Assembly (NCBI GenBank): GCA_025060615.1
Contig: JANXBS010000008.1
Span: 1 to 64,000, forward strand
Direction: 5' to 3'
Length of the DNA: 64,000 nt
Source of the DNA: Anaerolineae bacterium
Lineage (GTDB): Bacteria; Chloroflexota; Anaerolineae; DUEN01
Shown here: positions 8,870-29,528 of the stretch, one piece after another
How the letters are laid out: each line of letters opens with the position of its first letter
How positions within the stretch are numbered: position 1 is the stretch's first letter
The notes under the pieces: model-generated
Database searches by the model: none
What the model saw: only the letters and a program-made list of their open reading frames with translations
Told to the model about the DNA's origin: nothing
Translations under genes and position numbers: made by a program

Positions 8870-8894
8870 CTCCCCTGAGACAATCGTATATCGC

Positions 8895-8998
8895 ATCTGC
8901 TTGGGGGAGCTCGGGGAAGCCGGGCTGAGAGGGCGGCCGGATTCGCTGCCGACCCCAGGAACCTGATCTGGGTAATGCCAGCGAAGGGAAGGGCAGAT
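8895..8998 (+). ncRNA. TPP riboswitch (THI element)
   Basis: Senses thiamin diphosphate and controls the operon downstream. It shows the conserved GGGCTGAGAGG pyrimidine-sensing core near 8932-8942, then GACCC, GAACCTGATCTGGGTAATGCC and AGCGAAGGGAA near the 3' side. P1 closes by ATCTGC (8895-8900) with GCAGAT (8993-8998). A terminator follows within 20 bases, so control is probably by transcription termination. The downstream genes are all thiamine salvage or synthesis, which fits. Confidence 0.96.
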
Positions 8999-9016
8999 AA
9001 GCGTTGGTTTATGGTA

Positions 9017-9044
9017 AGCGCCACCCTTCGGGGTGGCGCTTTTT
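9017..9044 (+). terminator. Rho-independent terminator, riboswitch expression platform
   Basis: A perfect 10-bp stem AGCGCCACCC / GGGTGGCGCT with a TTCG loop, followed by TTTT. It lies 18 bases after the TPP aptamer and would be favoured when TPP is bound. Confidence 0.92.
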
Positions 9045-11254: not shown

Positions 11255-12076
11255 ATGACTGCGTTAAACGTTCAGATCGCTGAGGCGCTTTCTCGGATCC
11301 GCCAGGAGAAGCCGTTGATCCATCATATCACCAACCTGGTGGTAATGAACGACACGGCGAACGTGACTTTGCACGTAGGGGCATTGCCGGTGATGGCTCA
11401 TGCTATTGAAGAAGTGGCCGAGATGGTAGGATTGGCCGGCGCGCTGGTCCTCAACCCGGGCACGTTGACCCTGGATTGGGTGGAGTCCATGTTAGCCGCC
11501 GGACGACGGGCCAATGAGCGAGGGGTGCCCATCGTGCTTGATCCGGTGGGAGCCGGCGCAACCACGCTGCGCACGCAAACCAACCTGCGCCTGCTCAGCG
11601 AGCTTCGCATCGCTGTGGTGCGGGGGAACTCTGGGGAGATCGGCGCGCTGAGCGGCGCAGGTGGGGTCGTAAAGGGAGTAGAGAGCGTGGAGGGGGTCCG
11701 TGACCCTATCGCCGTAGCACAGGCTCTGGCTCGGGAACGGAGGACGGTGGTAGCGATCACAGGCAAGCGAGACGTGATCTCTGATGGCCAGCGCGTCCTG
11801 GGGGTGGACAATGGCCACATCTGGTTGACGACGATCACCGGGACGGGATGTATGGCGACGACGATGATCGCCGCCTTCGCCGCAGTGGAGCGAGATTACC
11901 TATTGGCGACGGCTGGGGGGCTGGCTTGTTTTGGCCTAGCGGCGGAGCTGGCCGCAGCCCAAGCTCATGGCCCTGCCAGCTTCAAACTAGCCCTTTTCGA
12001 CCAGATTTACAACCTGACACCTGAGCAGTTGGCCGAAGGGGCTCACGTCGTCGAGCTAGAGCCGGCGCAAGTTTGA
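11255..12076 (+). CDS. thiM: Hydroxyethylthiazole kinase
   Basis: Phosphorylates the thiazole alcohol for salvage into thiamin. 273 residues of ribokinase-like fold: PLIHHITNLVVMNDTANVTL at the start, LNPGTLTLDWVESM, VLDPVGAGAT, VRGNSGEIGAL and the anion hole/catalytic Cys in ITGTGCMATT. ATG at 11255 with AGGAG at 11242-11246. The 128 bases before it hold no other feature, so it may be transcribed from the riboswitch promoter or from an unseen internal one. Confidence 0.95.
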   Translation: MTALNVQIAEALSRIRQEKPLIHHITNLVVMNDTANVTLHVGALPVMAHAIEEVAEMVGLAGALVLNPGTLTLDWVESMLAAGRRANERGVPIVLDPVGAGATTLRTQTNLRLLSELRIAVVRGNSGEIGALSGAGGVVKGVESVEGVRDPIAVAQALARERRTVVAITGKRDVISDGQRVLGVDNGHIWLTTITGTGCMATTMIAAFAAVERDYLLATAGGLACFGLAAELAAAQAHGPASFKLALFDQIYNLTPEQLAEGAHVVELEPAQV

Positions 12077-12087
12077 GCGGTTCCAAA

Positions 12088-12158
12088 CCATCTCTGCATC
12101 TGGTGAAACCGCCCTGCAGCGGTTTCTAGGGTCGGTGAGGCCGAGCTTGCAGAGATGG
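12088..12158. repeat. Nested inverted repeats that can fold as a three-way junction
   Basis: A perfect 11-bp outer inverted repeat (CCATCTCTGCA at 12088-12098 with TGCAGAGATGG at 12148-12158) encloses a perfect 8-bp hairpin (GAAACCGC 12105-12112, GCGGTTTC 12119-12126, 6-base loop) and a short TCGG/CCGA hairpin (12132-12135 / 12141-12144). It sits between thiM and thiL and has no T-run, so it is not a standard terminator. It could be a cis-regulatory RNA or a small mobile repeat with 11-bp ends. Confidence 0.75.
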
Positions 12159-12205
12159 CCCGTGACTGCACTCTCGGGCTTCTACGGATGGAAAAGGAAA
12201 CCGCT

Positions 12206-13216
12206 ATGAAAGTGCGCGATATCGGGGAGTTCAATCTTATTAACCGCATCGCCCGGTCGCTCCCGGCGCCGAGGACTGGGGTCATCGTCGGCATCGGGGA
12301 CGACGTGGCTGTCCTGCAAAACCGTGATCGCTACATTCTGGCAACCTGCGACGTCCAGGTGGAAGGAGTCCATTTCCTGCGAGAAAAAATTCTCCCCTAT
12401 CAGTTAGGCCGGAGGGCCGTCGCTATCAACGTCAGCGACATTGCGGCGATGGGCGGAGTCCCCTGCTACCTGCTGGTCTCCTTGATGCTCCCCAGAGAGA
12501 CAGAGGTGGAGTTCGTGGACGGTCTTTACGAGGGGATGCGGGAGGAGTGCAGCCGCTGGGGGTCCGAGATCGTCGGTGGCAATATGGCCCACTCGCCAGA
12601 CAGGATCATTGTGGACCTCTTCTTGCTAGGAGAGGTGGAGCCAGAGCGGCTACTGCGACGTTCCGGCGCGCGCGTGGGCGACCAGGTGCTGGTGACCGGG
12701 ACACTAGGGGATTCCGCCGCGGGGTTGGCGCTGTTGCTTCACCCAGAGGCAACCTGTCCAGATCTCCATCGAGAGTTCGCCTTGCGCCGTCACCTCACAC
12801 CGACGCCGCGCCTTTGGGAGGGGAGGGTCATTTCCCGCTCCGGCCTAGCGACTGCGGCGATAGACGTCAGCGACGGCCTTGCAAGCGACGTTGGCCACAT
12901 CTGCGAGCGGAGTGGTGTCAGCGTCCGCCTCCGGGCCGATGCGATCCCTATCTCGGACGCCGCGCGGGCCATCGCGCAGGCCCTTAGCGCTGATCCGCTG
13001 GAGTGGGCCCTCTTTGGCGGGGAGGACTATGAATTACTCTTCACCGCCCCCGCCGACCGGGCGAAGGACCTCGCCCGGTGGGTACAGCAGGAAACGGGGA
13101 CGCCCGTCTCCATTATCGGTGAGGTCGTTCCGGCGGACCAAGGGATTGCCCTGGTTCATGCGGATGGGTCCGCCGTTCCGCTCTGGAAGGGAGGGTGGGA
13201 CCATTTCCGGAAATAA
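12206..13216 (+). CDS. thiL: Thiamin-monophosphate kinase
   Basis: Phosphorylates thiamin phosphate to thiamin diphosphate, the active cofactor. 336 residues with GEFNLINRIARSL, VGIGDDVAVL (Mg/ATP site), TCDVQVEGVHFLRE, GRRAVAINVSDIAAMGG, AIDVSDGLASDVGHI and FGGEDYELLFTA. ATG at 12206 with AAGGA 7 bases upstream is preferred. In-frame ATGs at 12155 and 12188 would add residues absent from the family, and 12155 lies in the inverted repeat described above. Confidence 0.94.
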   Translation: MKVRDIGEFNLINRIARSLPAPRTGVIVGIGDDVAVLQNRDRYILATCDVQVEGVHFLREKILPYQLGRRAVAINVSDIAAMGGVPCYLLVSLMLPRETEVEFVDGLYEGMREECSRWGSEIVGGNMAHSPDRIIVDLFLLGEVEPERLLRRSGARVGDQVLVTGTLGDSAAGLALLLHPEATCPDLHREFALRRHLTPTPRLWEGRVISRSGLATAAIDVSDGLASDVGHICERSGVSVRLRADAIPISDAARAIAQALSADPLEWALFGGEDYELLFTAPADRAKDLARWVQQETGTPVSIIGEVVPADQGIALVHADGSAVPLWKGGWDHFRK

Positions 13217-26603: not shown

Positions 26604-29528
26604 ATGGGTGTATTCCTTCGGATATGGGCGATCTTTGTGGTCGCCGCCAAACGCCTTTTCTCCCAGCGTGGGCTGGCGCTCGCAACCACGCTAGGGTTGA
26701 TCGCGGCCGTCGCGCTCACCATGAGTGTCCCTCTCTACGCAGACGCAGTCTATTACCGCATCCTGCGTGAGGAGCTGTCCAGGGGAACTGAGACACAAAG
26801 CGGGCTGGTCACTCGTCCGCCGTTTGCCTTCATGTTCCGCTACCTGGGTGCGTGGCATGGCGCCGTCCAATGGGAGGACGTTCAGCCGCTGGACACGTAC
26901 ATGACCCAGCAGGCCGGATCAGCGCTGGGCCTGCCGCAGAAGTTGTTGGTGCGGCACTTCAAGACCAACAACTTCCGCCTGTTCCCACAGGAGGACATCG
27001 CCTACGCGGACACCAAACAGCCGCTAGCCTGGGTGAGTTTCGCCTTCGTCAGTGGCTTGGAAGATCACATCACTATCCTAGAGGGCAGCTTCCCAGCGGT
27101 CACAGAGCCATCGCAAGACAGCACGGTGGATGTGCTTATCAGCGAAGCGCGCGCGCTGGAACTGGGCCTACAGGTTGGCGAGACGTATATCGCCTTCGAC
27201 CGTCGTAGTGCCCAGCAAGGGCGGACCATTCAGATCCCGGTGCGGATCGCCGGCATCTGGAAAGCCACAGATCCCCGGGAGGAGTTCTGGTTTTACAACC
27301 CGGCGGCGCTAGATGATCTGCTGCTGGTGCCAGAAGCGACTTTCCTGGGGCGGATCAGCCCATATCTGGACGACGAGGTGTATTTGGGGCTATGGTACCT
27401 GGTAATGGATGGCTCGGACGTGCACGCCAGCGATGCGGCGCCCCTCCTGGCCCGGATCACTGCGACCCGCCAGCGCGTCTCCTCGCTGCTTCCCAACACC
27501 AGCCTCGATGTGTCGCCAGTGGATGCCCTGCAGAAGTATGAGCGCTCAGCCGGGATCTTGACTATCCTGCTCTACGCGTTCAGCGTCCCCATTATCGGCC
27601 TGATCCTGGCCTTCATCGGCCTGGTGGTGGGGTTAGCAGTCGGGCGGCAGCGCAACGAGATCGCCGTATTGCGCAGCCGTGGCGCTACGGCGACGCAGGT
27701 GGTCGGGATTGCAGCTTTGGAGGGATTGTTGCTAGGCGCAGCAGCGTTAGCCATCGGCTCCCCCACTGGCGAGATGATCGCCCACGTGATCGGAAAGGCG
27801 CGTAGCTTCTTGAATTTCACCCTCGAATCGGACTTACGGGTGGGCATGACGATGGCGACGTTGCGCTTTGGCGTGATGGCGGTGGGACTGGCGCTAGTGG
27901 CCCAGGTAGTGCCCACCATCGGCGCGGCGCGGCACACCATCGTCACCTACAAACAGGAACGGGCGCGCGCCCTGCGGCCGCCGTGGTGGCAACGGGCCTG
28001 GCTAGACGGGCTGCTGCTCATCCCGGCCGGCTACGGCGCCTATTTGCTGCGCCAGCAGGGGAGCATCGCGCTACCGGTGGGCGGCACCATTGTCAACGAC
28101 CCGTTCCAGAACCCGCTGCTGTTCTTGGTGCCGGCGCTGGGCATCTTCGCGCTCACGCTCTTCCTGTTGCGTATCCTCCCGATGCTCATGGAGGGGATCG
28201 CCTGGGTAGCGGCTCATCTCGGAGGGGTGGGGACCTTGCTGGCGGCCCGCCATCTCTCCCGCACACCAGGTTTCTACTCGGCACCGCTGGTGCTGTTGGT
28301 GCTAACGCTCAGCCTCTCTGCGTTCACCGCTTCGCTGGCGCAGACGCTTGATAACCATCTGTACGACCAAATGTACTACCGAGTCGGCGCGGACATGAGC
28401 CTGGTAGAGCTGGGCGAGAGCACCGAGCAGGAGGGCGGCATGTTTGCAGCCTTCGGCGGGGGACAGGGCGGGGAAGGCCAGGCACAGGGCACTACGCCTC
28501 CTGAGGAGGAGCAAGGCCCGCGCTGGCTGTTCTTGCCGGTGTCAGAGCATCTGAAGGTGCCAGGCGTATTGGCGGCCGCCCGGGTGGGAAGGTATGCTGC
28601 CTCGACGCGGCTGAGCGGCGGGACCCAAACCGGCACATTTATCGGCGTGGACCGGGTGGATTTCACTCAGGTCGCCTTTTGGCGGCACGACTTCGCGCCG
28701 GCTTCTTTGGGCGCGCTGATGAACGCGCTGGCCGTCGCCCCTGAGGGTGTGCTGGTCCCGCGCGCCTTTATGGCCCAGCACGCGCTCAACGTGGGGGATA
28801 CCATCCGAGTCACGGTGGACACGTATGGGCAGCGCAACGAATTGGATATGAAGGTCGTGGGGGGAATAGACCTCTTCCCCACTTGGTATCCAGAGGAAGG
28901 GCCGCTCTTCGTGGGAAACCTGGACTATCTGTTTGAGCGAGCTGGCGGGCAGTTCCCCTATGACGTGTGGCTGAAGGTAGACCCGGAAGCGGACTTTAAC
29001 CAGGTCGTCGAAGGGGTACGGGCTCTCAACTTGCGGGTGTTGGATTGGGACGCAGCCTTGCTCGAGGTAGCTAAGGAACAACGACGTCCAGAACGTCAGG
29101 GATTGTTCGGTCTGCTCTCGGTGGGGTTCGGAGCTGCTGCGTTACTGACGGTGCTCGGCTTTCTGCTCTACGCCCTCTTCTCGTTCCGTCGTCGCTTCAT
29201 CGAGCTGGGCATCCTGCGGGCGATCGGCCTATCATCGGGGCAGATGACAGCTTTTCTGGCCTGGGAGCTGGCCTTTCTCATCCTGATCGGGCTGATCGCT
29301 GGCACTGGCTTGGGCGCGTGGGTCAGCGAGCTGTTCATTCCTTATCTCCAGGTAGGGACTGGGCCGTCGGCGCGCGTGCCGCCCTTCCTGGTGGAGATCG
29401 CCTGGCCGGCCATCTTCCGCATCTATGCCCTGTTTGGGCTACTGTTTTTGGTAGCGCTGATCGCGTTAGTGGCCCTGCTCCTGCGAATGAAGATCTTCCA
29501 GGCCGTGAAATTGGGTGAGACAGCGTAA
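26604..29528 (+). CDS. Very large FtsX/MacB-type ABC permease
   Basis: 974 residues. One membrane span near the N-terminus (about 24-46), a large extracellular domain (about 50-310), a first FtsX core of three spans (about 317-435, containing LRSRGATATQVVGIAALEGLLLG), further spans around 465-560, a second extracellular region (about 580-830, with a Gly/Gln-rich loop near 615-650), and a final FtsX core (about 840-965, with LGILRAIGLSSGQMTAFLAWELAFL). Both FtsX cores carry the family's coupling motif. It is followed without a gap by two ATPase genes. It probably exports a lipid, peptide or drug, or moves lipoproteins. Confidence 0.9.
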   Translation: MGVFLRIWAIFVVAAKRLFSQRGLALATTLGLIAAVALTMSVPLYADAVYYRILREELSRGTETQSGLVTRPPFAFMFRYLGAWHGAVQWEDVQPLDTYMTQQAGSALGLPQKLLVRHFKTNNFRLFPQEDIAYADTKQPLAWVSFAFVSGLEDHITILEGSFPAVTEPSQDSTVDVLISEARALELGLQVGETYIAFDRRSAQQGRTIQIPVRIAGIWKATDPREEFWFYNPAALDDLLLVPEATFLGRISPYLDDEVYLGLWYLVMDGSDVHASDAAPLLARITATRQRVSSLLPNTSLDVSPVDALQKYERSAGILTILLYAFSVPIIGLILAFIGLVVGLAVGRQRNEIAVLRSRGATATQVVGIAALEGLLLGAAALAIGSPTGEMIAHVIGKARSFLNFTLESDLRVGMTMATLRFGVMAVGLALVAQVVPTIGAARHTIVTYKQERARALRPPWWQRAWLDGLLLIPAGYGAYLLRQQGSIALPVGGTIVNDPFQNPLLFLVPALGIFALTLFLLRILPMLMEGIAWVAAHLGGVGTLLAARHLSRTPGFYSAPLVLLVLTLSLSAFTASLAQTLDNHLYDQMYYRVGADMSLVELGESTEQEGGMFAAFGGGQGGEGQAQGTTPPEEEQGPRWLFLPVSEHLKVPGVLAAARVGRYAASTRLSGGTQTGTFIGVDRVDFTQVAFWRHDFAPASLGALMNALAVAPEGVLVPRAFMAQHALNVGDTIRVTVDTYGQRNELDMKVVGGIDLFPTWYPEEGPLFVGNLDYLFERAGGQFPYDVWLKVDPEADFNQVVEGVRALNLRVLDWDAALLEVAKEQRRPERQGLFGLLSVGFGAAALLTVLGFLLYALFSFRRRFIELGILRAIGLSSGQMTAFLAWELAFLILIGLIAGTGLGAWVSELFIPYLQVGTGPSARVPPFLVEIAWPAIFRIYALFGLLFLVALIALVALLLRMKIFQAVKLGETA

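What the first reader, a model, noticed from the sequence alone, without database searches (positions are those of the whole stretch)
12088..12158. Compact three-way-junction element between thiM and thiL
Seen: perfect 11-bp outer and 8-bp inner inverted repeats plus a 4-bp hairpin, in 71 bases, with no T-run. The chance of nested perfect repeats of this size is low. It lies inside a thiamine operon, 48 bases before the thiL start, yet it does not match the TPP aptamer. Inference: an internal regulatory RNA, an RNA-processing site, or a tiny mobile repeat with 11-bp ends.
Basis: partly seen in the sequence, partly recalled or inferred. Interest (0 to 1): 0.62.

Follow-up and report, generated by a model that had tools for sequence, protein, structure and literature searches.

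The report
Decayed hairpin repeat inside thiamine operon
The folded 71-base element between two thiamine genes is the core of an old, single remaining copy of a scattered multi-hairpin DNA repeat found in many Chloroflexota genomes, and in some of them beside a transposase gene, so it is most likely a mobile-repeat relic rather than a dedicated thiamine switch.

Summary
In detail: 12088-12158 holds a perfect 11-bp outer stem, a perfect 8-bp inner hairpin and a second small hairpin (fold z -4.5, no T-run). It is not a thiamine-specific RNA. It is the inner part of a ~114-nt element (12073-12186) that belongs to a dispersed family of four-hairpin palindromes. A covariance model seeded with the window finds the family in 96 of 396 genomes of the same class (E <= 0.1), often at nine or more places per genome, in unrelated gene contexts. 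A model built without the window still scores the window at 40 bits (E 2.4e-8); the best hit in 206 kb of other loci is 13 bits. At nine of 26 loci with an IS200-type Y1 transposase domain, family copies lie next to the gene, on both sides at five. The window's genome has one convincing copy and no detectable Y1 transposase, and none of the relatives' thi loci carries the element. Best reading: an immobile relic of a REP/BIME-like repeat, now a folded spacer in the thi mRNA. A later role in shielding the thiL ribosome site is possible but unsupported by conservation.

The parts
12073..12186 (+). Whole repeat element, the single convincing copy in this genome; diverged member of a four-hairpin palindromic family
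   Evidence: R1 80.9 bits (window is in the training set); leave-one-out model R2 40.0 bits, E 2.4e-8, placed at 12070-12185; next best in own genome 19.8 bits, E 0.36
12077..12087 (+). Remnant of hairpin 1 (5' arm GCGGTTCC; canonical GGCGGTTGAAACCGC)
   Evidence: alignment to family, several pairs broken
12088..12098 (+). 5' arm of the junction stem (family CTACnnnnGC, here CCATCTCTGCA)
12105..12126 (+). Hairpin 2, GAAACCGC-CCTGCA-GCGGTTTC, perfect 8 bp
   Evidence: covariation in family
12129..12147 (+). Hairpin 3 (TCGGT-GAG-GCCGA core)
12148..12158 (+). 3' arm of the junction stem (family GCnnnnGTAG, here TGCAGAGATGG; GTAG foot replaced by ATGG)
12158..12179 (+). Hairpin 4, partly kept (GCCCG/CGGGC; canonical CCCGCGACTTCAGTCGCCGGGC)
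12194..12208 (+). Probable thiL ribosome-binding site and start (AAGGAAACCGCTATG); GGAAACCGC can pair with GCGGTTCC 12077-12084
   Evidence: fold of 12070-12230; accessibility model; start codon by homology to relatives' thiL
11255..12076 (+). thiM (hydroxyethylthiazole kinase), upstream gene
   Evidence: PF02110, E 1.8e-82
12206..13216 (+). thiL-like AIRS-family kinase, downstream gene; the longer ORF from 12155 starts inside the repeat and is probably not the real start
   Evidence: PF00586/PF02769
8893..9041 (+). TPP riboswitch (8893-9007) and intrinsic terminator (9016-9041) heading the operon
   Evidence: RF00059 67.5 bits; terminator scan

Best explanation
The element is an immobile, partly decayed copy of a dispersed multi-hairpin palindromic repeat of REP/BIME-like kind. 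The family unit is about 115 nt: hairpin 1, a linker CTACnnnnGC, hairpins 2 and 3, a linker GCnnnnGTAG, and hairpin 4. The two linkers are complementary in each copy, so the strand can fold into a long arm ending in a three-way junction. In genomes rich in it, copies sit mostly between genes, and some flank an IS200-type Y1 transposase gene, which probably moves or moved them as single strands (inferred). The window's copy lies just after thiM. It has lost hairpin 1 and the GTAG foot but keeps the junction stem and hairpin 2 perfectly. This genome has one convincing copy and no detectable Y1 transposase, so the copy should no longer move. In the thi transcript it most likely acts only as a stable folded spacer that may protect the thiM 3' end and lower access to the thiL start (inferred). 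Shown by computation: membership, conserved structure in the family, dispersal, transposase linkage at some loci, single copy here. Inferred: mobility mechanism and effect on mRNA.
For: BLAST of 12077-12206 over 396 class genomes finds relatives in two other families: 77% over 70 nt (E 1.2e-6) and 86% over 43 nt (E 6.4e-6), per-genome E-values. Model R1 finds matches in 96 of 396 genomes at E <= 0.1, many reaching the cap of nine scored candidates, and in 26 of 340 phylum genomes at E <= 0.001, including families outside the class. Leave-one-out model R2 gives the window 40.0 bits, E 2.4e-8 in 114 kb, against a best of 13.4 bits in 206 kb of other loci. In 80 aligned hits 94.3% of pair cells are standard pairs, and 30 of 31 pairs show two-sided changes, far above shuffles and slid controls. 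Junction linkers pair better with their own partner than with others' (30-32 copies, z -3.2 to -4.4). Copies border 9 of 26 Y1 transposase loci, both sides at 5; density 1.16 per kb within 350 nt against 0.12 per kb further away. Own genome: next match 19.8 bits, E 0.36; no PF01797 hit. 26 of 33 copies lie outside ORFs of 200 aa or more.
Against: The window copy is far from canonical: hairpin 1 and the GTAG foot are missing, so an older common ancestor or an RNA with its own function is not strictly excluded. Relatives lack the element at this place, but no genome of the same genus was available, so no clean empty site was seen. R2 was trained on copies found with R1, which contained the window. 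The 80 aligned hits include both strands of the same palindromic copies and tandem copies, and were aligned to the model's structure. Transposase linkage holds for a minority of loci, two of the five both-side loci are the same neighbourhood in one genus, and the control is within-locus only. The tested transposases score as IS200-type and not as RAYT. Mobility itself was not shown.
Confidence: 0.85

Rival explanations
1. The relic has been co-opted as a translation control leader: the orphaned 5' arm of hairpin 1 (12077-12084) pairs with GGAAACCGC at the thiL ribosome site, with the stable junction in between, lowering thiL translation unless thiM ribosomes open it.
For: MFE fold of 12070-12230 forms this pairing. 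Modelled unpaired probability of 12193-12208 is 0.32 with the element, 0.69 with it deleted, 0.58 +/- 0.07 with nine bases of the arm shuffled and 0.56 +/- 0.11 with the whole element shuffled. The 71-nt core is 2.5-5 SD more stable than randomly mutated relatives at the same divergence.
Against: The pairing was noticed after the fact and is about 2 SD from the shuffled elements; the longer fold is only z -2.2. No relative has it. Stability of the core may date from the time the repeat was mobile.
Confidence: 0.12
2. A thiamine-pathway regulatory RNA (riboswitch-like) specific to thiM-thiL.
For: Position in a thi operon headed by a TPP riboswitch; strong fold.
Against: No Rfam match at the element. 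Not found at thi loci of relatives; the thiM-thiL gap of the G015 relative is about 13 nt with no element. Homologous copies lie beside unrelated genes: kinase and response regulator, glycosyltransferase, toxin-like and nucleotidyltransferase ORFs (annotation by eye).
Confidence: 0.03
3. Chance nested palindromes or an intrinsic terminator.
For: A nested arrangement of this size appears in 1 of 40 shuffled windows.
Against: Leave-one-out match to a family with strong covariation; no T-run and no terminator call.
Confidence: 0.02

Closest known systems
GTAG-tagged REP dimers (tail-tail type) and BIMEs, Di Nocera et al. 2013 (PMC3733652)
   Same: Intergenic palindromes in inverted pairs with GTAG at the inner feet in part of the copies; spacers with complementary ends or small stem-loops are described; often close downstream of genes; reported in Chloroflexi and Cyanobacteria
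   Different: Here the unit is about 115 nt with four hairpins and a covarying junction stem; GTTG is as common as GTAG (13 against 11 of 43 right feet). The window copy has neither tag and is alone in its genome. The published consensus sequences are in figures not held here, so identity with one of their 24 families could not be checked
REPtron: REP sequences flanking a tnpA-REP (RAYT) gene (PMC6006769, PMC3733652)
   Same: Family copies border a single-domain Y1 transposase gene, on both sides at five loci
   Different: The three transposases tested match the IS200/IS605 model above its cut-off and the RAYT model far below its cut-off or not at all
MITEs and palindrome-associated elements of IS200/IS605 (from general knowledge)
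   Same: Non-coding structured repeats likely moved in trans by an IS200-type transposase
   Different: Ends and target sites of the present family were not mapped

Membership tests
Four-hairpin Chloroflexota repeat family defined here | Order and sequence of hairpins 1-4 with linkers | tested here: met
   R2 built without the window: 40.0 bits, E 2.4e-8
Four-hairpin Chloroflexota repeat family defined here | Complementary variable linkers forming the junction stem | tested here: met
   Family-wide test z -3.2 to -4.4; window pairs at -12.7 kcal/mol, rank 2 of 32 with extended linkers
Four-hairpin Chloroflexota repeat family defined here | Intact hairpin 1 | tested here: not met
   Several broken or missing pairs in the window copy; one training member, L073, also has it truncated
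GTAG REP | GTAG tetranucleotide at the hairpin foot | tested here: not met
   Window has ATGG/CCAT; in the family 11 of 43 right feet are GTAG and 13 GTTG
GTAG REP | High copy number in the host genome | tested here: not met
   One convincing copy in own genome; other genomes reach the cap of nine or ten scored matches
GTAG REP | Host encodes or encoded a RAYT | tested here: not met
   No PF01797 match in G000
REPtron | Copies flank a RAYT gene | tested here: inconclusive
   Copies flank Y1 transposase genes in other genomes, but the three tested score as IS200-type; the window copy flanks none
TPP riboswitch | TPP aptamer consensus | tested here: not met
   No RF00059 match at 12000-12300; only hit is 8893-9007
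Intrinsic terminator | GC-rich stem followed by T-run | tested here: not met
MITE | Target-site duplication or mapped ends | not tested
   No empty site available in the same genus; none evident by eye in the flanks

The most novel reading that the evidence does not exclude
A family of ~115-nt four-hairpin palindromes shared by Chloroflexota and at least two Cyanobacteria, apparently linked to a subgroup of IS200-type transposases rather than to RAYTs, whose variable linkers coevolve within each copy. Relics such as the one between thiM and thiL may later be recruited as translation-control structures.
Probability: 0.3. Interest if true: 0.55.

Novelty: new variant of a known kind. Interest (0 to 1): 0.36.

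Why it matters
It turns an apparent operon-specific RNA into a member of a widespread repeat family, and so prevents a false riboswitch call. If the link to IS200-type transposases holds, it would extend the REP-transposase partnership beyond the RAYT group and give a structure-rich repeat family, present in many genomes of two phyla, in which mobility of single-strand hairpins can be studied.

Tried and rejected
TPP or other Rfam family: none at the element, nor at nine loci with canonical copies. Terminator: no T-run. tRNA-like: none in the window. The exact hairpin pattern AAACCGCCNTGCRGCGGTTT hit mostly terminator-like or unrelated sites, so it is not diagnostic. Phage collection: no match to L074. 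Further copies in the own genome: the hit at 28461-28571 (18.2 bits) lies inside a 974-aa permease-like gene and is taken as chance. RNAalifold on the four seed sequences gave a different fold and was not used. RNAalifold on 25 copies found the hairpins but not the junction stem, which was therefore tested separately. Text search for a core sequence of the family found no paper.

Full report
Observation. CCATCTCTGCA (12088-12098) pairs perfectly with TGCAGAGATGG (12148-12158), GAAACCGC (12105-12112) with GCGGTTTC (12119-12126), and a small hairpin sits at 12132-12144. The 71-nt strand folds at -37.5 kcal/mol, z -4.5. A nested perfect pair of this size occurs once in 40 shuffled windows. The element lies between thiM (PF02110) and a thiL-like gene (PF00586/PF02769) in an operon with a cytosine/purine/thiamine-type permease, thiE, Thi4 and thiD, headed by a TPP riboswitch and terminator.

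Not a known RNA. No Rfam family matches the element, there is no T-run, and ARAGORN reports no tRNA or tmRNA in the window. The element itself occurs once in its 3.86-Mb genome.

A dispersed family. A DNA search of 396 genomes of the same class found related sequence in genomes G034 (two places) and G015, from other families. A covariance model of four sequences (R1) then found matches in 96 of 396 class genomes at E <= 0.1, many at the cap of nine scored candidates, so copy numbers are lower bounds, and in 26 of 340 genomes sampled across the phylum at E <= 0.001. Two Cyanobacteria also carry family members (L167 and L168 score 68-69 bits with R2).

Membership without circularity. R1 contains the window, so a second model (R2) was built from 25 copies without it. 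R2 places the window copy at 12070-12185 with 40.0 bits, E 2.4e-8 in 114 kb. In 206 kb of other loci, including the relatives' thi loci, the best hit was 13.4 bits. R2's copies were collected with R1, so some circularity remains.

Anatomy. The canonical unit is: hairpin 1 (e.g. GCCCGGCGACTGAAGTCGCGGGC), CTACnnnnGC, hairpin 2 (e.g. AAGCCGCCCTGCGGCGGCT), hairpin 3 (e.g. AGTCGGCGCAGGCCGACTT), GCnnnnGTAG, hairpin 4 (e.g. CCCGCGACTTCAGTCGCCGGGC). It is nearly palindromic and most copies match on both strands. On 80 aligned hits, 94.3% of cells pair against 74.2% in shuffles, and 30 of 31 pairs show two-sided changes. These hits include both strands of the same copies and tandem copies, and the alignment was fitted to the structure, so the counts are inflated; RNAalifold on 25 separate copies also shows two-sided changes in 19 of 26 pairs. 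The linkers differ between copies but pair with their own partner better than with others' (30-32 copies, z -3.2 to -4.4). The window copy has lost hairpin 1 and the GTAG foot, keeps hairpin 4 in part, and keeps the junction stem and hairpin 2 perfectly.

Link to a transposase. At nine of 26 Y1 transposase loci from 17 genomes, family copies lie within 350 nt of the domain, on both sides at five; density is 1.16 per kb there against 0.12 per kb further out. R2 confirms the strongest of these. Two of the five both-side loci (L142, L146) are the same neighbourhood in one genus, and some hits at L131 and L137 are weak. The three proteins tested match NCBIfam's IS200/IS605 transposase above its cut-off and the RAYT model far below its cut-off or not at all. 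The window's genome has no detectable Y1 transposase, and its next best family match is 19.8 bits, E 0.36. The copy should therefore be immobile.

Position and context. 26 of 33 copies examined lie outside ORFs of 200 aa or more, and neighbours differ in orientation and kind. No thiM or thiL locus fetched from relatives carries the element. The gap there is filled differently: about 13 nt in L013, a tandem array upstream of thiL in L030, another palindrome in L028, and a 157-nt unrelated sequence in L012. This fits a variable spacer that collects repeats, and does not fit a thi regulator.

Possible effect on thiL. The orphaned arm GCGGTTCC (12077-12084) can pair with GGAAACCGC at the thiL ribosome site. 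In the model the site is 32% open with the element and 69% without it; shuffling nine bases of the arm gives 58%. The 71-nt core is more stable than randomly mutated relatives (2.5-5 SD), but this may reflect the time when the repeat was mobile. I regard recruitment as possible, not shown.

Comparison with what is known. The closest kind is the GTAG-tagged REP, in particular tail-tail dimers with structured spacers, reported in Chloroflexi and Cyanobacteria (PMC3733652), and the REPtron, where such repeats flank a RAYT gene (PMC6006769). The window copy fails three defining features of a GTAG REP: the tag, high copy number and a transposase in the host. It is therefore filed as a relic of the family described here, which works like REP dimers. 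I found no paper in the library with the family's core sequence, but the published consensus sequences are in figures not held, so identity with a named family is open.

Noticed in passing
L028 2885-2935: A different palindrome (GTAGCACAGGC...GCCTGTGCTAC) lies between the thiE-like gene and thiL of an Anaerolineae genome, so this spacer also holds another repeat type in a relative.
   Followed up: partly
L030 1-290: About ten tandem copies of a ~30-nt unit (gggcaacccttgcggttgccctggattgt) directly upstream of thiL.
   Followed up: no
L167 1501-1641; L168 1501-1627: Members of the same four-hairpin family in two Cyanobacteria (Cyanosarcina, Hassallia), R2 68-69 bits, suggesting the family spans phyla.
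   Followed up: partly
L146 887-2284: Five strong tandem family copies around a Y1 transposase domain in G227; the transposase match covers only part of the domain.
   Followed up: partly
L136 1364-1801 (-); L149 1429-1854 (-); L142 1489-1902 (+): Related IS200-type transposases starting MRAPYTQL are flanked on both sides by family copies, which looks like a distinct subgroup.
   Followed up: partly
window 12155-12205: The longest thiL ORF starts inside the repeat; homology to relatives puts the real start at 12206, so automatic annotation may overextend thiL.
   Followed up: yes
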